Source of the DNA: Isoetes taiwanensis
Lineage: Eukaryota; Streptophyta; Lycopodiopsida; Isoetales; Isoetaceae
Assembly (NCBI GenBank): GCA_021234155.1
Contig: JAJEKV010000103.1
Span: 2,914,001-2,978,000 of the forward strand
Direction: 5' to 3'
DNA: 64,000 bases
A model generated the notes under the pieces. That model was not told the DNA's origin and made no database searches. It saw only the letters and a list, made by a program, of their open reading frames with translations. Numbering within the stretch: position 1 is the stretch's first letter; each line of letters begins with the position of its first letter. Both the position numbers and the translations under genes were made by a program. Below, in pieces: positions 34,964 through 59,161 of the stretch.

Positions 34964-35750
34964 ATGCCCAACCTTCCTTTTTTTGGTTTCCTTTCCTTCC
35001 TCTTCTTCTTTGTTCTTGATTTTTTTTCTTCCCATTCTTCCATGCCTCGTTCATTCTTCCTCCTTCTTTCTTTCTCATGCTTCATTTCTTGCTCATTCTT
35101 CCTCATGCTTCATTTCTTCCTCCTTCTTCCATGCTTCATTCTTTCCTCATTCTTTCTTCCCATATTTCTTCTTTCCTCATTTCTTTCTCATTCTTTCTTC
35201 CTCATTCTTTCTCATTTCTTTCTTCCTCATGCTTTCTCATTCTTTATTCCTCACTCTTTCTCATTCTTCCTCATTCTTTCTCATTTCTTGCTTTCTCATT
35301 TCTTTCTCATGCTTTCTCATTTGTTTCTCATTTCCATTCTTTCTCATGCTTTCTCATTCCTCATTCTTTCCCCTCCCTTCCCTCATTTCTTTCTTCTCTT
35401 CCCTTCCTTATTCTTCATTTTTTTTTCATTTCTTATTCTTCATTCTTTTTAATTTCATTTCTTCATTCTTCATTTGTTTCTTATTCTTCACATTTCTTCC
35501 TCACTTTCCATTCGATCCTTTTCTTTCCCTTCCTTATTTCTTCCTTCCATTCTATTCCCCTTTCCTTCTCTTATTTCCTCTTATTTTCTTCATTCTTTCT
35601 TGTTTCTTCTCTTATTTCTTCTCTATTCTATCCTTATTTCTTCCCTTCTATTCTCTTATTTCTTTCTCTTGTTTTATTTCTATCTCTTGTTTTTCTATCC
35701 CCTTTTTTTTCCTTTTTTTTCTTCTTGATGTTTTCTTCTTTGTTCTTATT
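34964..35750 (+). repeat. Polypyrimidine tract of ~790 bp built on CATTCTTTCTC and TTCC
   Basis: The plus strand is almost entirely C and T, with scattered A in CATT/CTCAT words. Repeated words are CATTCTTTCTCATTTCTT, CTTCCTCATTC and CTTATTTC. Three long overlapping open frames exist here only because stop codons need A or G. Their low-complexity Ser/Phe/Leu products are artefacts. Such strand-asymmetric tracts can form triplex DNA and grow by slippage. Confidence 0.85.
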
Positions 35751-48982: not shown

Positions 48983-50989
48983 TTAGGAACATTGCCTCTT
49001 CTGTGCAAGTGCTAATAACGTTCCTGCCTTCCTCTTGATCCCTTTTTTTGAGCCCCTGAAAGCCTCAAAACCCATTGTCTGTAGTCTCCCAAGCATTTTG
49101 GTGGCCGCATCGCCTTTGGCTTTTTTCTTATCTGGCATCTGCAAACTGACTTCCTTCACATAACCTTTATCAGAATGGACAGTTACTGACATTGTGAACC
49201 ATCTTTTATGTTCTGGCCCTCCACATTCCTCCATTTGGAACATTGGTTGCTCCCATTTCCATTTTGTACACATTTCATACAAATTAGATACTGCAGCCCC
49301 ATGCCTAATGAGTGTCATAATGTCAAAAGTATTTTCAACCTGTGTGCTATCAATAATCCCTTCATCAGATGAGCTCGGCAGTATATCATGCATCTCAACT
49401 GAATCGTGGCTTCCATTTTGTATATTTACTTCTTTTATTCTTCCAGAATTTGATATGGAAGAATGCTCTAACATGGAAGAATTATCTATAATGGACTCGT
49501 CTGAAATGCCTCCACCAGAAGATTCCATTTCCATCTCTTGAGAACTCCCAAGTCTGTTGTGCATCTCATCTGGAGACTGGCTTCTTAAGTCTTCTACTAA
49601 ACCATTACAAGGATGGAAAATACCTCGCTCTGCAAGTATCTTTATAAGCTTTTCCGCAACTTCTTTCTTGGCTTGCTTTTGCTTTGCCTCTGAAGATTCT
49701 AAAATTTCTTCCTCTGGAAGTTGGACTTTACCTTTATACAGCATGAATTTGCCATCTCTTTTAATCTTCTCCCACGTAAACCCAAGTTTGTGGAAGTCAC
49801 AAATTTCCTGAATTTCTTTCACAGGATGAAGTGGTAGTGTTTCTGGTGTTACAAGAGGCGATAGCATCGGCTTGATCACCACCCAAACCCGTTCCAGGTT
49901 GAAGGATGTGTCAACAAGAATGGCACCTACCATGCTTTCAACCACATCACCTAATACCTTTGGTGCGCCAGCTCCCTTCCATCCAAAGGATGGCTTGTCC
50001 CCACAACTTGAGTGCATGCTAACAAAATCACTTATACTATCGAGAAGCTCGCTAGATGCATGTTGAATATAGCCTTGCAAATTATACTTTACAGCGACCC
50101 GTGCAAAACAACCATTGTTTACAGCAGCCTGACGCAGATCCGTCATTGTTCCAGGAGACAGACCTGGGTGTGACTCGAAAAGGTGCTTCGTAAGAAGGAA
50201 GTCCAAGGCAGCATCCCCAAGAAACTCTAATCTCTGATAACACATTTGTCCCTGCATAGATGGATGTGTTATTGCTTCTATCAAAAGGCTCTTGTTTTTA
50301 AATGTATATTTCAAAATGGACTCCAGAGACTCCACAATTGGCAACATGGTCTGCATGCTGTTAGATGACACACATGCACGCTGTTGTGCAGAATGTATCA
50401 AACTTGTATTAAATTTACACTCAATTCCAACCCAGGACATGAAATCTAAAGCACATGCACTGCCTGCCTCAGCCAAACATACTCCAATAAGGGCTTCAAC
50501 TACATCAGCAATGGTTTTTGAACACATCCAACGATGACCACTGCTACAAGTTTTTCCAATCTTAAAGACCTCAGTATCCGTTCCCTTCAATTCACAATCA
50601 TCATTTTTAACAAGATTGGACATTTCGCATCTGCATTCAACCATCTTGTGGGGATGCATCCCTGGGGCAACCCATAGTGTTGGTTGGAAAACTTCATCAC
50701 GTATATATCCTGGTAATCCACGTGAAACAGCCAGTTTATGGAGGGCTGCATTGCAGATAGCCCGGCCGCTGTATGGATAACTGTCCTTCATGGTTATTTT
50801 GAAAACAAGAAACAAATACTGACTAACTGCATACTTAAGATATGAATCTCCAAGAAGCTCAAGGCCTTCAAAAGAGAAACCTTCAAGACAACGAAGTGTG
50901 GTTAAAGCCTCCATGATATATTTTGCCGGAACAGAGGGAAATGCAGGAATTGTCTTCTTGATTTCATTGCGCGAACTCGCTTGCTGAAA
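48983..50989 (-). CDS. DCL: Dicer-like protein, C-terminal part (RNase IIIa, RNase IIIb, two dsRBDs)
   Basis: Dicer-like proteins cut double-stranded RNA into small RNAs for silencing. Numbered from the Met at 50914 (643 residues). RNase IIIa has the signature EGLELLGDSYLKY at 16-28 (the usual ERLE has Gly for Arg) and DVVEALIGV at 137-145. RNase IIIb has QRLEFLGDAALDFL at 227-240 and DVVESMVGAILVD at 323-335. The acidic residues that bind metal are present in both domains. dsRBD1 lies at about 362-432 and dsRBD2 at about 529-615, separated by an acidic, Ser-rich linker. A basic KKGIKRKAG near the C-terminus could be a nuclear localisation signal. The open frame extends upstream of that Met to 50989 and overlaps the end of the N-terminal frame, so this is the second half of one gene split by a frameshift, not a separate gene. 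No intron is seen. Two dsRBDs argue against a single-dsRBD DCL2 layout, but the subclass is not settled. Confidence 0.9.
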   Translation of the reverse strand, partial: FQQASSRNEIKKTIPAFPSVPAKYIMEALTTLRCLEGFSFEGLELLGDSYLKYAVSQYLFLVFKITMKDSYPYSGRAICNAALHKLAVSRGLPGYIRDEVFQPTLWVAPGMHPHKMVECRCEMSNLVKNDDCELKGTDTEVFKIGKTCSSGHRWMCSKTIADVVEALIGVCLAEAGSACALDFMSWVGIECKFNTSLIHSAQQRACVSSNSMQTMLPIVESLESILKYTFKNKSLLIEAITHPSMQGQMCYQRLEFLGDAALDFLLTKHLFESHPGLSPGTMTDLRQAAVNNGCFARVAVKYNLQGYIQHASSELLDSISDFVSMHSSCGDKPSFGWKGAGAPKVLGDVVESMVGAILVDTSFNLERVWVVIKPMLSPLVTPETLPLHPVKEIQEICDFHKLGFTWEKIKRDGKFMLYKGKVQLPEEEILESSEAKQKQAKKEVAEKLIKILAERGIFHPCNGLVEDLRSQSPDEMHNRLGSSQEMEMESSGGGISDESIIDNSSMLEHSSISNSGRIKEVNIQNGSHDSVEMHDILPSSSDEGIIDSTQVENTFDIMTLIRHGAAVSNLYEMCTKWKWEQPMFQMEECGGPEHKRWFTMSVTVHSDKGYVKEVSLQMPDKKKAKGDAATKMLGRLQTMGFEAFRGSKKGIKRKAGTLLALAQKRQCS

Positions 50990-53900
50990 TCATTGCCGAT
51001 AGTCGATGGATAAATGAAGGAAGCAAATATAGCGAACGAACAATTGAGTTGTCTACATCAAGAAACAAGCATAGTTCTGGAGGAATTAAGACAACACCAG
51101 TCCTGCCAGACTCAACATCCATATCCTTCTTTGATGTTATGAGAAGATTGTGCGGCTTATGTGTCTGTTTTACCATTAACAGAGGCTGTAGTGGAAACTT
51201 CAGTGCTCTTGCATGAGCCTTTTCAAAATATTCTGCATATGTTGCAAAAGATTTATCTGGGAATTCAGAGGTTGCATTTTCATCAGAAATGCCTTGTATA
51301 CAGAAGATCCTCCCAGTATGAATTGTAACAATAACACAATCCTTCATCTGAGATACGTCCACTAAGCCACCTGCTGTCTCCAGCCCCTTTTTACTTTGAT
51401 AATTTAAACTGCTTCCTCTATTGACATTGCAAATATTTTCAAATAGCCTAGTAGCTATTTCACAGCTCTTTGCTGCCTTCCAGTTAATTTCAAAGTGTTC
51501 ATGTTCAATCAAAGGAAGCACAAGATACAGATTGGACTCAGACCAAGTTTCTTTCCATCTAAATGAGCATTCAATACTTGTTGTCCCATGTTCATTCTTT
51601 TTTCGTAACAACATTTTGCTAAACATTCCATTGAAGAGGACTTCGTGAAATGCCTTAGCAGCAGAGAGGTCATATGGACTGATTTGAAGTTCTCCGAGAC
51701 ATGATAACTTGGCTTTAACCATCCTGTGCACACCTAAGGATAGATCAACTTCAATGTTGGCTACATCATCATCAAGTTTCGCATCAATCAGAATCGCAAA
51801 TTTACAATAACTGCCATTGTCCAAGTTTTGGGAGAGAAAGGCAAGCTGGTATGCATGTAGGGTGGCTTCACCTTTGTTTATCCAGCGTCCTTGGAATGCA
51901 GATGGCCTTACTGATGGATGCAATTCCTTCCATTTAGTTGTGCCTGATCCAGAAGTCAGTTCATGGCTAAGATTCGATAAATGTTCATCTTCAACAAGCT
52001 GGTCATTAAGGACCCCCATAGAATGCAGCCTTTTGCAGGCCTCTATACATGCTGATTCTTTTGCAAGCTGTTTGCTACAATGTGTCAAACCTGTTACTGT
52101 GTTCATTGGTGCATTTGGGGGAAAGTAAATTGTGCATTTAAATAAGTCCATTTCTTTCTCCATTCTTTCAACTCTTTCAATGTTAAATGCTGGCCTTGGA
52201 ATGTAAAACTGATCATGTGGGAGCTTTGAACAGTAGCGATATATGAAACCAATACTTGACCCAGAGAAAATTGTAGCCCCCTTCGATTCACCTCCATATT
52301 TATCCTGAGATTCATTGTCATCACAGTCTGAAAAAAGTGGGATGTCGCTTCTGATTTTTGCCTGCTCTCTCATGCTTTTTTCACTTTTCACCAATTCCCA
52401 CAGAAGGTCCTCTTGTTTCTTATTACCTCTTTCTACATATAGAATGTATTCAGACTCACTGTGACGAGCTCGGCCACGGGACTGAATGTAACCACGCACT
52501 GTACAGGATAAATCAAACCTTATTACACAGCTACAGGAGGTGATGTCAAGACCCTCTTCTGCCACAGATGTAGCTATCAAAACATTCAACTTGCCTGAAT
52601 GGAACATCTGCAAAGTGTCATGCTGCTGTCTAGAAGTTTTTGAATGGTGATCAGTATTAAGACCTGTCATATAGTCACACTTCACATTTGGCATATGTTT
52701 CATATGGTTTACCAATCTGGATAAGACAATGGAGACCACAACCCGGTCTACAAATACAATGCATCGCATGTCTTCCTTATTTCTAAAACGCATAAGATCT
52801 TGCAATAATAACTGAACCTTTGGAGTAATTAAGTTCTGCATAATAACAGGGTCCATATTTGTCATATTTGCTTCTTTACCAAGGTTTTCCTTGTAACCAG
52901 ATGTGGCATCCTCCAGTAAATTTATAACCTCCTCTAGAAAAGGATGTCTGGACTTATGTAAGAGTTTCTTGTCTGATTCTTCGAATTCGCCTTCCTCATT
53001 TAAAAAGAAATGGGCTGCCTCCAATGCACACCATATTCCAAGATCAAAGAGGCAGTGATCCAATGCATTGTGTAGGTTTCTGATTTCTTTGTCAGCCTTG
53101 AGTTTCGTCTTTTCCAAATCTGCAAATCCCGTTGCACATTTCTTGTCGCAACCAAGAAACTTGTCCCTCAAATCCCTGAGCTTCTGCCTTACAGATTCAA
53201 AAGACCGTGAACTTCCATAAAATCGCGTCCGTTGCAGTGGGATTGGCACAAATTCTTGTAACTTTGTGCGATCTTTGATGGCATACACCTTGGAATCTAA
53301 CATCATCTCCAATTTCCTTATTTGTTTTGCACAATCAGCACTAGAAGCAACACCCTTTTGTTGCACTGGTGAAGCTGTCATGCCAAAGATTTTAGGCTTC
53401 CTTCCCAATTGGCTATGGTAATAATTTTTCATTATCTCAGCATATGGATGTTTCTTCTGTGCATGATGGCATTCATCAAAAATAATAATCTCAACGATGT
53501 CCATTTTGAGGGATGAAAACCCTAGAGCATCAAGAAAAATTTGGGGTGTCATGACAAAAATTTCATGACTCTCAACTTCTTTTTGCCACTGTGATTTACT
53601 CCATGCATCAATTGCTTTTTCACCATAATAAATACCCACCTTGAGATCTGTATGTGTGGCCAAAACATGAGCTTGCTGGATCACAAGTTGGATTGTTGGA
53701 GCAAGAAATACTCCTATGCGCTTCCCGACTCTTAATTTATACGCAAAGGAAAGTAAAATTAAAACTGCTATGAACGTTTTGCCAGAACCTGTATCAAGGT
53801 AAGCAATTGTGTTTTCCTTAAGCGCCTGCTGCAAGACTTCGTTTTGATAGCTTCGAGCTGCCATAGCCGGAACATGCGTTGGTAAAAGTTGCGCTGTTGG

Positions 53901-54002
53901 GTCCTCTACTAAGTTCGTTACAACGGTTGATCTGTTGTGGACAGGAAGCTTAGGACATGCAACAATCTGGGCCCGGCGTTTCACTCGCAAAGGATCGCCC
54001 AT
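50964..54002 (-). CDS. DCL: Dicer-like protein, N-terminal part (DExH helicase, DUF283, PAZ)
   Basis: A 1012-residue frame starting at ATG 54000-54002. The helicase has Walker A TGSGKT at 71-76, DECH at 176-179, the TASPV motif at 209-213, LIATSVAEEGLDI at 475-487 and YIQSRGRARH at 505-514. DUF283 follows at about 585-690. The C-terminal half of the PAZ domain is clear at 890-980, with TIHTGRIFCIQGI, SFATYAEYF, FPLQPLLMVKQTHKPHNLL and LIPPELC. The frame ends in a premature TGA at 50964 right after LLPSFIHRL, where plant DCLs lead into RNase IIIa. With the C-terminal half the protein would be about 1.67 thousand residues, in the plant DCL range. Plant DCL genes normally have twenty or so introns; this has none. 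The start is supported by stop-rich, TATA-like sequence just upstream. Confidence 0.92.
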   Translation of the reverse strand: MGDPLRVKRRAQIVACPKLPVHNRSTVVTNLVEDPTAQLLPTHVPAMAARSYQNEVLQQALKENTIAYLDTGSGKTFIAVLILLSFAYKLRVGKRIGVFLAPTIQLVIQQAHVLATHTDLKVGIYYGEKAIDAWSKSQWQKEVESHEIFVMTPQIFLDALGFSSLKMDIVEIIIFDECHHAQKKHPYAEIMKNYYHSQLGRKPKIFGMTASPVQQKGVASSADCAKQIRKLEMMLDSKVYAIKDRTKLQEFVPIPLQRTRFYGSSRSFESVRQKLRDLRDKFLGCDKKCATGFADLEKTKLKADKEIRNLHNALDHCLFDLGIWCALEAAHFFLNEEGEFEESDKKLLHKSRHPFLEEVINLLEDATSGYKENLGKEANMTNMDPVIMQNLITPKVQLLLQDLMRFRNKEDMRCIVFVDRVVVSIVLSRLVNHMKHMPNVKCDYMTGLNTDHHSKTSRQQHDTLQMFHSGKLNVLIATSVAEEGLDITSCSCVIRFDLSCTVRGYIQSRGRARHSESEYILYVERGNKKQEDLLWELVKSEKSMREQAKIRSDIPLFSDCDDNESQDKYGGESKGATIFSGSSIGFIYRYCSKLPHDQFYIPRPAFNIERVERMEKEMDLFKCTIYFPPNAPMNTVTGLTHCSKQLAKESACIEACKRLHSMGVLNDQLVEDEHLSNLSHELTSGSGTTKWKELHPSVRPSAFQGRWINKGEATLHAYQLAFLSQNLDNGSYCKFAILIDAKLDDDVANIEVDLSLGVHRMVKAKLSCLGELQISPYDLSAAKAFHEVLFNGMFSKMLLRKKNEHGTTSIECSFRWKETWSESNLYLVLPLIEHEHFEINWKAAKSCEIATRLFENICNVNRGSSLNYQSKKGLETAGGLVDVSQMKDCVIVTIHTGRIFCIQGISDENATSEFPDKSFATYAEYFEKAHARALKFPLQPLLMVKQTHKPHNLLITSKKDMDVESGRTGVVLIPPELCLFLDVDNSIVRSLYLLPSFIHRLSAMISASEFAQ
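50967..50989 (-). other. Frameshift site splitting the Dicer-like gene
   Basis: The N-terminal frame is open down to 50967 and the C-terminal frame is open from 50989, so the shift must lie in this 23-base overlap. The overlap contains GCGCGAACTCGC (plus strand), the densest CG cluster nearby. No GT-AG intron of workable size fits. It is either a real inactivating indel or a base-calling error. The domains continue correctly on both sides. Confidence 0.8.
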
Positions 54003-54055: not shown

Positions 54056-54611
54056 TAGGACCTTTCCCAAATGTGCCTTTTTCATTTTTGCCAGCCTACG
54101 TATACCCTCTAGACACATTTTGTCGCTTCTGACATCTTGGCGTCATCTGGCGAACACCGGGGTGGTTCTCATATCTCTTCACGTCACCCCATACCTCCCT
54201 GCACTCACATATGGGGGGGACTGTGGGCGTCACGCCCACCTACAAGTACCTAGGGGTGGAGTTCCCCTCGCCTCGGGGGGGGGGGCGTCTATCCGCTTAT
54301 GGGTGGTGCCAGGGCCGGAAAGCGCTTTTATGCAATCTAAGAACAGGTCACCAGCGAGCTATATGATTGGGGCCATCAGTCACATCATTCAGGGCACCTT
54401 GGGTCGAGCCCTTTGTCCTTCATGCGGGGGGTCGAGGTTTGGGGAACGCGTCTCTTTGGCGACTGGAATGACTTGGAGCAGTCGAGTGAAGGCATTTTTG
54501 GCACGGGCACTGGGGTGAAACCTTGATCCCCTATCGGATTCTCGGGCCGCGTAAAACGGATTCTTAAAGCCCGGTGACGGCCCTTGATAGACACATCGCC
54601 TATTTTCGAAA

Positions 54612-55148
54612 GTGGTTACTATGGGTGATGCTCGGCTCCCGCGACCGGGCTTACACTTTGTGGCCATGAGTCCGCAAATGCTTAGGGGCCTGTTGGAGGG
54701 TAAGAGAGACTGGTTCGGGGATGGAACGTCGCAGATACAGCATGCGCATACTGTTGCTAGCGTGACCGATCGTGGATACTGCATGGAGTACCTAGATGCT
54801 TGTTTCCTCGGTAAAGCTCGGGACCCCATTGCTCTAGAGCAGTCAAAATGGCCCATTACAAAGGAGCACATCAACCAGGTGTTAGCCCGGGGCCACGGCT
54901 CTACCGTTCGCGTTCCGGCCGAAAAGCGCAGCTCATTGCCTCCATTCGGCATTGTGCCCACCATCTTCGCGATCGAGGCGGGCGGTGGATTGGGGAGCCC
55001 CGCCAGACAGGGCTCGGCTGCGGTCTTTGTCAAGCGGGTGCCGCTTGAGGATGAGTCTCACACTTTCAGAGTTGCCCGGTTGTTCGGTCAGTTCGGGCGA
55101 ATCGCTCCCTTAAAATGCGGTGGGCGTGCCCTTGCATTTTGCCGATGA
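54612..55148 (+). pseudogene. LINE C-terminal region, longest open piece (178 codons)
   Basis: One frame reads VTMGDARLPRPGLHFVAMS, DGTSQIQHAHTVASV and YLDACFLGKARDPIALEQSK, and ends at 55148. It aligns with 43830-44288 of the other LINE copy (VNMGDARLPKLAYIMAME, YLGDCFLGKLWDANALEQS). The N-terminal start shown is only the first Met after a frame change, not a real start. Confidence 0.65.
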
Positions 55149-55408
55149 ACACCACGGTCGATGCGTGCTTTGGGGTCATACATCCGGGAGGTCTCCCCGG
55201 ACTCGCGAGGTCACCTTTGCCCCTTGGTTTGTCCGTGACTAGGCACTACGGGGGTGGTGCATGATTGTATATATTGGGATGTTTACGCATTTTATATGAT
55301 TTACGCGGTTTGTCGGCCCGGTGATTTCGCCCCGCGGTTTTCCCTCGAAAACCCTTGGTGGGGTTTTTAATCGAGGCAAGAATCAAACTTCTTTGTCGTT
55401 TTTGTATT

Positions 55409-55475
55409 GGGTCCCATAGACCGATTGGTCTCCGTGGACGATAAAAGTAACTTCCTTCCTTCCTTCCTTCCTTCA
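55409..55475 (+). repeat. LINE 3' tail: hairpin AGACC-GATT-GGTCT plus CTTC repeat
   Basis: The stem AGACC (55418-55422) pairs with GGTCT (55427-55431) around GATT. It is followed by CCGTGGACGATAAAAG and a CTTC repeat of about six units. This is the best preserved member of the tail family. Confidence 0.8.
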
Positions 55476-57640
55476 ATTTCCTTCCAGACCCTTCATCGCG
55501 TTTTGACTTCTCTATAAATATCATGCCTTTTTTAATATTAGTTGACGAGGTCCCTATTCTAGTCTTTATTAAGGTCATGCAAGTATGTACATAGATAGAA
55601 AGATAGGTAGGTTTTTTAACAACAATTTTGAGTGTGTATTATTTTCTGGGCCCTTGGATCGTGGCATATTTGGTAGGATATTCCCCCTCCACAGATCCTG
55701 TTCGACCATCTAAGGTCTTTCTCGAGTCAAACTGGCCCTTGTTGACCCACTATGAAACCATCAACCATTGGTTAAAATAGTATTCTGGCATTTGTACAGT
55801 ACAGTGTCACATACAGTCCAATATAACTCAAACACATGAACAGGAGATCAACATGACATGAGCCTAGGAAATCGAACCCCAGTTCCAATCCAATGCTCAA
55901 GGCTTACCTGAAGCTTAAAGTACGGGCAGACCAAAGAACATAAAACAAACACATAATATCTTACAGTAGGACCAAAGGGGTTTTTCATAATTTGTACTCC
56001 TTTATGGTGCAATAGGATAATTGAACCGTGGCAAGGGGCTTGTTCAGAATGGTGGCAATGGATGGAGTCGAGTTTATCAGAGATAGTGCAAAGATAAAAA
56101 AATATATGTTTCAAACAAAATAGGCCTAGCAGTAAATACCTCCTTACAGATTTGTATTTGCACCAAACGCCAAGAAAAAATAGGCAACAGTCTCCAGCAG
56201 AAAAAAATCAATGGACTCAAATAATGATGGATTTTAAGATCCGAATGAGAATTCTAAGAATAGAAGAATAAGCAAGGTACCATGCTACCTAGAATCCGTC
56301 AGAAAATCCTGAAAGAAAAAGTAGAATCGTTCGAAATTTCAATGCCCTAAGGTGGTTTAGGGTGCTATGCAGAAGGTCGGACCATCTGCCATCGCTAGCC
56401 CCCTTCTAAAACCATCAAACATCTCTTAGTTGCTTACATAGAACTTCGAAGGCGGTGCTAGCAAGAAAAGAAAAGGAAAAAACAAATATGTCTGGCGGAT
56501 CTTGCTTGCTTGCAGAGAAAGACATTTGTAACAAACAGCAACAATTCGGCCAGCTCCCATCTTCTCCGCATGACCAACGCGACACCTGCAAGGGCCGGAA
56601 TTGGCGTCGCCCTCCCTGGGCACCATATGCCCCACCCCCACGTGAGATATTATCCGCCCCTGAACCTTGATCCCAAAAGAAATATCCCGTCTTTCCAAAA
56701 CCCATATGCCAACATCATCTTTGTACGTATTTACATATGAATACCACACTAAACATTAGAAAACCTTAAGTTATAAAAATACGACTTCTGATTGTGCAAA
56801 CATTATAGATAGGTTAGTCTAGAAATTGTATCTTTCCTTTTTCTTTGCCTTTTACATACTAATCCTTGCCCTCCACAATTGCTTCTCCCCTTAGGAGCAA
56901 CTCCTCATGAGGCTTGGTGATACCCGCCTTCCTTTTAAATGGTTATACGTAAAGACTCTCGATATGCAAAAAGCATCGTGTGCTTTCATTATGTCATATC
57001 TTCCGTTTTTACAATCTCACATGTCGAAACATGCGGTGTAACATTATAGTAGCTCATGAGAACACTAAAAGCAAAGCCAAGATGAAGCTAGAAAACTTAA
57101 GTTAGCCAATTCTAGTGTGGGTGGATAGGTTGATTAAAAAATAGATTCTAAGCAATGTGATTGGTTACAAAACTAAAAGCATACCCCTCTCTGCCTCCTC
57201 ATCTTTCTCACAGAATTTTTCTAATGCGAGTGGGAGTTGGTACAGTGCAGCCACACGAGGACAATGACCATGTGCATGAGCTGGCTTAAGAAAATTCGAG
57301 AGCATAAATCCCACGGCTTAGAAAATTAAGAAGAAAGTTTTTTCGTGGCGTACAAAATTAAAGAAAAATTTTTTTGTCTCTCTAAAATAAGACTCAAACT
57401 GGCTATTTTTTGTTGTCTGAATGCCTTTTGATTGTGATGTGCCAAATGGCATGGGGAATGGTTACCAGGAGGTCTGCTACGAGTATGATATGATAGGAGA
57501 GTCATACTAGCATTGGTCATGTCTCCATTCATTCCATTTATGAAGGACATTCACTTTCTTCGATACGATAGGAGAGTCATACTAGCATTGGTCATGTCTC
57601 CATTCATTCAATTTATGAAGGACATTCAAAAGATGTAATT
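55476..57640. other. Intergenic DNA, no gene recognised
   Basis: AT-rich sequence with frames under about 110 codons on both strands and no domain I recognise. The only clear structure is a 75 bp tandem duplication at 57492-57640. Confidence 0.55.
57492..57640. repeat. Two-copy 75 bp tandem duplication
   Basis: GATAGGAGAGTCATACTAGC begins at 57492 and again at 57567. The units continue through CATTGGTCATGTCTCCATTC and TTTATGAAGGACATTCA and differ by about one base, so the duplication is recent. Confidence 0.8.
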
Positions 57641-58235: not shown

Positions 58236-58292
58236 AGTTGGTTAAAGCTTTAAGCCATTACTTTAAAGACCCAGGTTCAAATCCGGCTAAGA
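58232..58292 (+). repeat. tRNA-like (Pol III A/B-box) SINE head joined to a LINE
   Basis: TCTAGTTGGTTAAAG resembles a tRNA A box, and GGTTCAAATCC about 35 bases later is a perfect B box. The remainder does not fold as a full tRNA, so it is a tRNA-derived SINE head or promoter. LINE RT sequence follows within about 25 bases, giving a tRNA-like/LINE chimera. Confidence 0.5.
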
Positions 58293-59161
58293 ACTCAACA
58301 TTTTTGGATCGTGTGGGAGTACCAATGCCACTAAGGGAAGCTGTGAAAATGCTGTATGATAAGGTGATTGTTCAACTATCTTCACCATATTTTGAATCTT
58401 CCAGAACAAAAGTACAGAGTAATATGGGAGTCAAACAAGGTTGCCCACTGTCGCCAACCTTATTTGGTATATTTATTGATGATTTGGAAAATTGGATTGT
58501 GTCATTGGGAGGGGATGGTATGGTGCTTGCTGGATATGTAATAGCATTGCTTCTCTATGCGGATGATATAGTACTGCTCTCTAGAAGCCACAAGGGCATG
58601 CAAAGACATTTAATTATCCTTGAAGCTTTCTGTGCTGTCACGGGCATGCAGGTGAATTTGAGCAAAACAAAGATAATGATCTTTGGCACTACGTTAGATG
58701 ATGGCTATGTATTCACCTATGGAGGACACTCAGTAGAGATTGTGAAGGAATATAAATATCTCGGATTGCTAGTGGATAAAAGCTACAGGTGGAATAGAAC
58801 AGTGGATCAAAGGGTAACTGGGGGGGTTAAAGCTCTCTTCGCCATGCAAAGAAGGTGTGCAAAGGGTGAGATCTATAGATTCAACCTAAAGAAAATGCTC
58901 TTCCTAGCTCTAGTCCAATCAGTGGTGTTATATGGATGTGAGGTGTGGGGACCTGGCCTGTCATTGGATGGATGGCAAAAAATTGAGAAAGTGCTAAAAA
59001 GATTTCTTCATAGTGAGTTGGGTGTGAAAACCCAAACACCCTATGAAATGCTATTAGTAGAAAGCGGTATGATTCAGCTTGAAGGGGAAGCTCTTTGTCG
59101 GTACCTTACTTATCTCAAGATGGCGGGAGAAATGCATGATAATGACTATTCTGCGCTATAA
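58238..59161 (+). pseudogene. LINE reverse transcriptase fragment (307 codons open)
   Basis: The open frame covers the second half of the RT. GVKQGCPLSPTLFGIFIDDL is at about residues 67-86, and the catalytic YADDIVLLSRS at about 107-117. GMQVNLSKTKIMIFG and YKYLGLLVDKS follow, then the thumb region. The N-terminal half of the RT and the endonuclease are missing. The first ~20 codons are translated from the tRNA-like head. A stop at 59161 precedes a frame change. It is the least damaged RT in the window but too truncated to be active. Confidence 0.85.

What the first reader, a model, noticed from the sequence alone, without database searches (positions are those of the whole stretch)
48983..54002. 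Intronless Dicer-like gene of ~5 kb among transposons
The frame runs through helicase, DUF283, PAZ, two RNase III domains and two dsRBDs without an intron. Plant DCL genes are known for many introns. Catalytic residues are kept in both RNase III domains and the helicase motifs are intact. This looks like a retrocopy kept under selection, or a very recent one. No poly(A) tract or target duplication was seen next to it, so the retrogene idea rests on the lack of introns alone. A retro-derived Dicer placed beside LINEs would be a notable addition to a silencing pathway.
Basis: partly seen in the sequence, partly recalled or inferred. Interest (0 to 1): 0.75.

Follow-up and report, generated by a model that had tools for sequence, protein, structure and literature searches.

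The report
Decaying copy of ancient Dicer retrogene
This is a now-broken member of a small intronless Dicer lineage that arose long ago when a plant's spliced Dicer message was copied back into the genome, and that then evolved as a working gene for most of its life before its copies began to decay.

Summary
The window holds an almost full-length Dicer-like sequence on the minus strand (48983-54002), but not in one frame: an extra base at about 50973 splits it into a helicase/DUF283/PAZ frame (1012 aa) and an RNase III/dsRBD frame (643 aa), and two more indels garble part of RNase IIIa. The genome, which matches the published Isoetes taiwanensis assembly in size, holds an intron-bearing relative (C1044; 23 modelled GT-AG introns, 63% aa identity). 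The copy lacks all 23, with no alignment indel beside any, so a spliced mRNA was copied. The event is old (dS about 1.2). The lineage stayed under purifying selection: omega is 0.22-0.24 against the parent, and its protein changed no faster than the parent's (87 vs 69 changes, p=0.17). It was later duplicated with its flanks. Of four near-full copies, two share three stops; the window copy is frameshifted, looks neutral and has a 1.4-kb repeat 106 bp upstream; the matching copy on C930 keeps 1564 codons but loses the last dsRBD. So this is an ancient, once-functional Dicer retrogene now decaying, not a recent retrocopy and not an intact gene. Whether any copy still works needs RNA data.

The parts
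50964..54002 (-). Retrogene ORF1, 1012 aa: DEAD helicase (about 53852-53367), Helicase_C (52805-52467), Dicer dimerisation/DUF283 (52256-51993), PAZ (51350-51060)
48983..50914 (-). Retrogene ORF2, 643 aa: RNase IIIa (about 50869-50468), RNase IIIb (50236-49910), C-terminal dsRBD (about 49291-49091)
50973..50973 (-). Extra base that breaks the frame between PAZ and RNase IIIa; absent from the three other copies
50767..50805 (-). -1/-2 indel pair that garbles about 12 residues of RNase IIIa
54109..55500 (.). 1.39-kb dispersed repeat (4739 first-look candidates, 40 of 40 scored ones matched) lying 106 bp upstream of the start codon; absent at this place from the matching copy on C930
48806..54108 (-). 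Gene plus close flanks shared by the four near-full copies (in L005 only to 53994). Homology resumes upstream at about 55501-57009 in all three others and downstream at 45890-46925 in L004 and L005, so the copies arose by segmental duplication and not by separate retropositions
51097..51881 (-). Slice of the gene that exists as older fragments elsewhere (L006, L007, L009 whole; L008 in two pieces; L010-L012 in part); all but L010 lie within about 0.55 Mb on C912 or the matching part of C930

Best explanation
An mRNA of a Dicer-like gene (the forerunner of the present C1044 gene, probably the DCL3-type gene of this plant) was reverse-transcribed and inserted long ago, giving an intronless full-length Dicer that gained expression and was kept by selection as a second Dicer beside its parent. 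Shown: the copy lacks all 23 modelled introns, is sister to C1044, and was long under purifying selection. Inferred: insertion by an endogenous reverse transcriptase, expression, and a dsRNA-dicing role like that of the parent. Later the locus was duplicated with its flanks and the copies began to decay: the neighbour copy (L004/L005) first, the window copy later. The C930 partner of the window copy still keeps helicase through RNase IIIb open but has lost the last dsRBD.
For: Parent model with 23 GT-AG introns, 1634 aligned codons, no stop; 23 of 23 introns absent from the copy with no alignment indel within four steps. Sister to C1044 with support 100 in both trees. dS 1.17-1.19 and omega 0.22-0.24 against the parent for the four copies. 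Substitutions without selection at 0.3 and 0.6 per site left 39 and 57 stops on average (lowest 24 and 43) in 100 runs each, yet 1564 codons are open in L003. Relative rate 87 copy vs 69 parent with C1100/DCL1 as outgroup (p=0.17), 62 vs 55 with C1030 (p=0.58). Against its own dead fragments the gene branch (L003) has 14, 13 and 17 changes at codon positions 1+2 where the fragments L006, L007 and L009 have 44, 43 and 39. Branch counts N/S: ancestor of window and L003 6/10, omega about 0.22, p=0.003; L003 tip 14/12, 0.43, p=0.026; window tip 20/7, 1.04; ancestor of L004/L005 44/7 plus 3 stop changes.
Against: No poly(A) run and no parental UTR match above chance level; target duplication not searched. 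No expression data. No copy as assembled is open from start to the last dsRBD. Polarisation rests on an outgroup at dS 1.2, 28 differences could not be polarised, and the p values are one-sided and uncorrected. The intron model is least sure in the poorly conserved linker before the last dsRBD (guide aa 1460-1546). Single indels (the T run in the window copy, the A run in L003) could be Nanopore errors.
Confidence: 0.86

Rival explanations
1. A processed pseudogene that never worked: inserted recently or dead on arrival.
For: The window copy is frameshifted, its tip branch looks neutral (20 N/7 S), and a repeat sits 106 bp upstream of its start. The neighbour copies share three stops.
Against: dS about 1.2 with omega 0.22-0.24, protein rate no higher than the parent's, 1564 open codons in L003, and two- to three-fold fewer changes at codon positions 1+2 than in its own dead fragments.
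Confidence: 0.04
2. The window copy is intact in the plant and the indels are errors of a Nanopore-based assembly.
For: The published assembly uses Nanopore reads with Illumina reads and pilon polishing (PMC8566536, passages seen); the -1 in the window copy and the L003 tail frameshift lie at single-base runs, and the -2 removes a pair of A.
Against: The +1 and the 6-base loss in the window copy are not in single-base runs; the window tip looks neutral; a repeat is inserted upstream.
Confidence: 0.12
3. Introns were lost by gene conversion of a duplicate with cDNA, not by retroposition to a new place.
For: No poly(A) run or parental UTR match remains; at this age the two routes look much alike.
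Against: The intron-bearing gene is still there on another contig and the two are sisters; 23 of 23 modelled introns are gone, which conversion would have to remove along the whole gene.
Confidence: 0.06

Closest known systems
Intron-bearing Dicer-like gene of the same genome (C1044:4102.7-4121 kb), probably the DCL3 type by elimination
   Same: Same domain order; 63% aa identity over 1634 codons; sister with support 100
   Different: 23 modelled introns against none; the copies now carry frameshifts or stops
Plant DCL1, DCL3 and DCL4 (solved chains 7eld, 7vg2, 9kby)
   Same: Helicase-DUF283-PAZ-RNase IIIa-RNase IIIb-dsRBD order and motifs; 45%, 46% and 41% identity over the RNase III part
   Different: Class not resolved: support around the C1044 clade is 40-70; the N part scores best with DCL4 and DCL1, the RNase III part with DCL1 and DCL3
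Okra AeDCL3, reported as a single-exon DCL
   Same: A plant DCL with no intron, as stated by its authors (PMC10668803, passages seen)
   Different: There it is one of four single-copy DCLs; here the intronless gene is an extra paralogue beside an intron-bearing parent
Retrogenes in general (recalled)
   Same: Intronless copy of an intron-rich gene kept under selection
   Different: Full length at about 5 kb, a large multi-domain RNA-silencing enzyme

Membership tests
Dicer / DCL | DExD/H helicase, DUF283, PAZ and two RNase III domains in that order | tested here: met
   window, across two frames; L003, one frame
Dicer / DCL | Single open frame able to make the whole enzyme | tested here: not met
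   Window copy split; L003 open for 1564 codons but frameshifted before the last dsRBD; L004 and L005 carry stops
Dicer / DCL | Catalytic acidic residues in both RNase III domains | tested here: met
   Strings GFSFEGLELLGDS, SKTIADVVEALIG, QRLEFLGDA and LGDVVESMVGA present in the window copy and L003; which residues are catalytic is recalled
DCL3 class | Groups with DCL3 in a tree | tested here: inconclusive
   support around the C1044 clade 40-70, human Dicer falls among the plant genes; C1100 with DCL1 at 100, C1030 with DCL4 at 51 and 55
Retrogene | Intronless copy with an intron-bearing parent elsewhere in the genome | tested here: met
Retrogene | Poly(A) tract downstream | tested here: not met
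   No A-run of 7 or more in 682 nt (window) and 700 nt (L003) after the stop; at dS 1.2 one is not expected to survive
Retrogene | Target-site duplication | not tested
Retrogene | Selection on the copy after insertion | tested here: met
Retrogene | Transcription of the copy | not testable with these tools
   No RNA reads held

The most novel reading that the evidence does not exclude
Quillworts carry an extra, retro-derived Dicer that ran as a second silencing enzyme beside its intron-bearing parent for a large part of Isoetes history. It is now segregating or freshly fractionated: one homologous segment holds a broken copy with a repeat at its promoter, the other a still-constrained Dicer without its last dsRBD, so that individual plants may differ in their small-RNA repertoire.
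Probability: 0.3. Interest if true: 0.68.

Novelty: new member of a known kind. Interest (0 to 1): 0.45.

Why it matters
Dicer copy number shapes which small RNAs a plant makes. The land-plant survey that I saw in passages (PMC5569507) reports DCL1, DCL3 and DCL4 as single copies in most species studied and calls the 24-nt siRNA pathway incomplete in lycophytes especially. A long-lived retro-derived second Dicer in a lycophyte, now decaying, would be a natural test of what an added Dicer does and of how it is lost.

Tried and rejected
Recent retrocopy: rejected by dS of about 1.2. Separate retropositions of the four copies: rejected, they share flanks. C1071 and C1034 as closer parents: both are partial, intron-bearing copies of the helicase exons of the C1044 gene (137 of 161 and 143 of 164 residues identical to it). 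Class by tree: unresolved. Parental UTRs in the copy: five matches at E 0.09-0.32, the best 26 bases at 81%, taken as chance.

C912 and C930 as two haplotypes or as a recent segmental duplication: unresolved. Genes and fragments follow the same order on both, but the fragments L006 and L007 have no listed counterpart on C930. A piece at C912:3620000 matches C930 at 85% over its length and 93% over 826 bases, but is itself repeated on C912. A piece at C912:500000 matches the small contig C326 at 99%, and C930 is not among the 40 of 1024 candidates scored. The genome paper itself speaks of low-Ks syntenic pairs that may be recent segmental duplications. A transposon as carrier of the 785-bp fragment family: copies share flanks, but local duplication explains this as well.

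Rows dropped: one search left out guide codons 1060-1085 in the pair counts, and codons with gaps or stops. One search left out the same stretch, codons not present in all four copies and 2 sites with several or conflicting states; 28 differences (13 S, 15 N) could not be polarised, which may thin the synonymous counts on the two ancestral branches. One search used 3 of the 7 fragment loci. L019 was fetched and not searched. One search showed 60 of 122 PDB matches; one search scored 45 of 112 candidates and 40 of 201. Paper searches that gave nothing of use: 0 papers; 197 papers, 10 listed, none opened.

Full report
Where it is. The window is C912:2914001-2978000 of a 1,658,258,908-base genome in 1110 contigs. 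The published Isoetes taiwanensis assembly is 1658.30 Mb in 204 scaffolds plus 909 contigs (PMC8566536, passages seen). I infer that this is that assembly, of a diploid lycophyte; no tool names it.

What is there. On the minus strand, 54002-50964 is a 1012-aa frame with DEAD, Helicase_C, Dicer_dimer and PAZ, and 50914-48983 is a 643-aa frame with two RNase III domains and a C-terminal dsRBD. The two are in different frames. Alignment with the three other copies shows one extra base in the window at about 50973, a -1 and a -2 that garble about 12 residues of RNase IIIa, and a 6-base loss. The finding's single open frame is therefore wrong for this copy as assembled. The frame of its counterpart on C930 (L003) is open for 1564 codons through RNase IIIb, then shifted before the last dsRBD.

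Parent and introns. Protein searches of the genome find an intron-bearing relative spread over C1044:4102.7-4121 kb. At none of the 23 is there an alignment indel within four steps. Identity is 63%. In trees of the RNase III part, and of RNase III plus helicase, the intronless protein and C1044 are sisters with support 100. C1100 goes with DCL1 at 100 and C1030 with DCL4 at only 51-55. C1044 is thus probably DCL3 by elimination, since a survey reports DCL1, 3 and 4 but no DCL2 in the four lycophytes it studied (PMC5569507, passages seen); the trees do not resolve this.

Age and selection. Copies against the parent give dS 1.17-1.19 and omega 0.22-0.24 (NG86). For scale, the genome paper puts the Isoetes genome duplication that it finds at a Ks peak of about 1.8 and cites about 0.5 and 1.5 for two in other species (methods differ). 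With DCL1 as outgroup the copy has 87 own changes and the parent 69 (p=0.17), with C1030 62 and 55 (p=0.58): the intronless protein changed no faster than the intron-bearing one. In 100 simulated runs each of substitutions without selection on the parent's codons, 0.3 and 0.6 per site leave 39 and 57 stops on average, lowest 24 and 43. In a 785-bp slice that also exists as dead fragments, the L003 branch has 14 changes at codon positions 1+2 against 44 on fragment L006, 13 against 43 for L007 and 17 against 39 for L009, while third positions give 8 against 10, 7 against 12 and 8 against 13. The lineage therefore worked for most of its life.

Recent history. Four near-full copies exist: the window copy and L005 on C912, L003 and L004 on C930. 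They share flanks, so the two loci came from a segmental duplication (dS 0.04-0.05 between the pairs). L004 and L005 share stops at guide codons 134, 260 and 536. Within pairs, window-L003 gives dS 0.018 and omega 0.49, L004-L005 0.013 and 0.93. Branch counts N/S: ancestor of L004/L005 44/7 plus 3 stop changes; L004 22/10; L005 22/2; window 20/7; L003 14/12 plus 2 stop changes; ancestor of window and L003 6/10; expected neutral N/S 2.73 at the observed transition bias. So the window tip looks neutral, while L003 and the shared ancestor look constrained (one-sided p 0.026 and 0.003, uncorrected). I did not test the window tip against the L003 tip directly. A 1.39-kb dispersed repeat (4739 first-look candidates, a rough count) lies 106 bp upstream of the window copy's start and is absent from L003. 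Sequencing error cannot be excluded for single indels.

Surroundings. Of seven other long frames of the window scanned with Pfam, one matched: a reverse transcriptase (RVT_1) at 58238-59161 (+). The gene's 3' side also matches dispersed repeats (58 places listed, 40 of 201 candidates scored).

Literature. Searches for 'Dicer-like' with 'Isoetes' (1 paper), for intronless/Dicer-like/DCL/retrogene (42 papers with three of four terms, 20 listed, two opened), for Dicer-like/retroposition/intronless/plant (1 paper), for minimal Dicer-like/intronless (0) and for DCL genes/no introns/Dicer-like (2) showed me no report of a retro-derived Dicer in a lycophyte. Word searches for Dicer in the two Isoetes genome papers gave 0 occurrences in the main text. 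Okra AeDCL3 is described as single-exon by its authors (PMC10668803, passages seen). Potato DCLs are given 17-41 introns and Arabidopsis DCLs 19-24 (PMC12885295, passages seen).

Verdict. Retro-origin and long selection are well supported; 'recent' and 'intact' are not. The window copy is most likely a decaying copy of an ancient Dicer retrogene. Present function of the C930 copy is open.

Noticed in passing
L006-L012 (C912:3249-3278 kb and 3493 kb, C930:3404 kb and 3537 kb, C1067:7087 kb): Older fragments of the intronless Dicer, four loci with the same ends (window 51097-51881), some sharing flanks with each other; one lies on another contig at 96% identity over 237 bp. Local duplication or capture by a transposon.
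   Followed up: partly
L016 (C1071:1757 kb) and L017 (C1034:15765 kb): Partial intron-bearing copies of the helicase exons of the C1044 Dicer gene.
   Followed up: partly
L015 (C1042:9700491-9701408): A divergent short Dicer-like locus with both RNase III domains in one 334-aa frame, 33-34% identical to the intronless copy and C1044 over that part.
   Followed up: partly
window 35025-35711: Degenerate pyrimidine-rich tandem arrays (TTCTTCCTCATT-like units), with strong skew over 34-36 kb.
   Followed up: partly
L004 and L005, between guide aa about 60 and 89: An insertion of about 1.6-1.9 kb in the helicase part of the neighbour copies.
   Followed up: no
C912:500000 and C326:9674: 99% match over 1.5 kb between C912 and another contig, which hints at haplotype contigs left in the assembly.
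   Followed up: no
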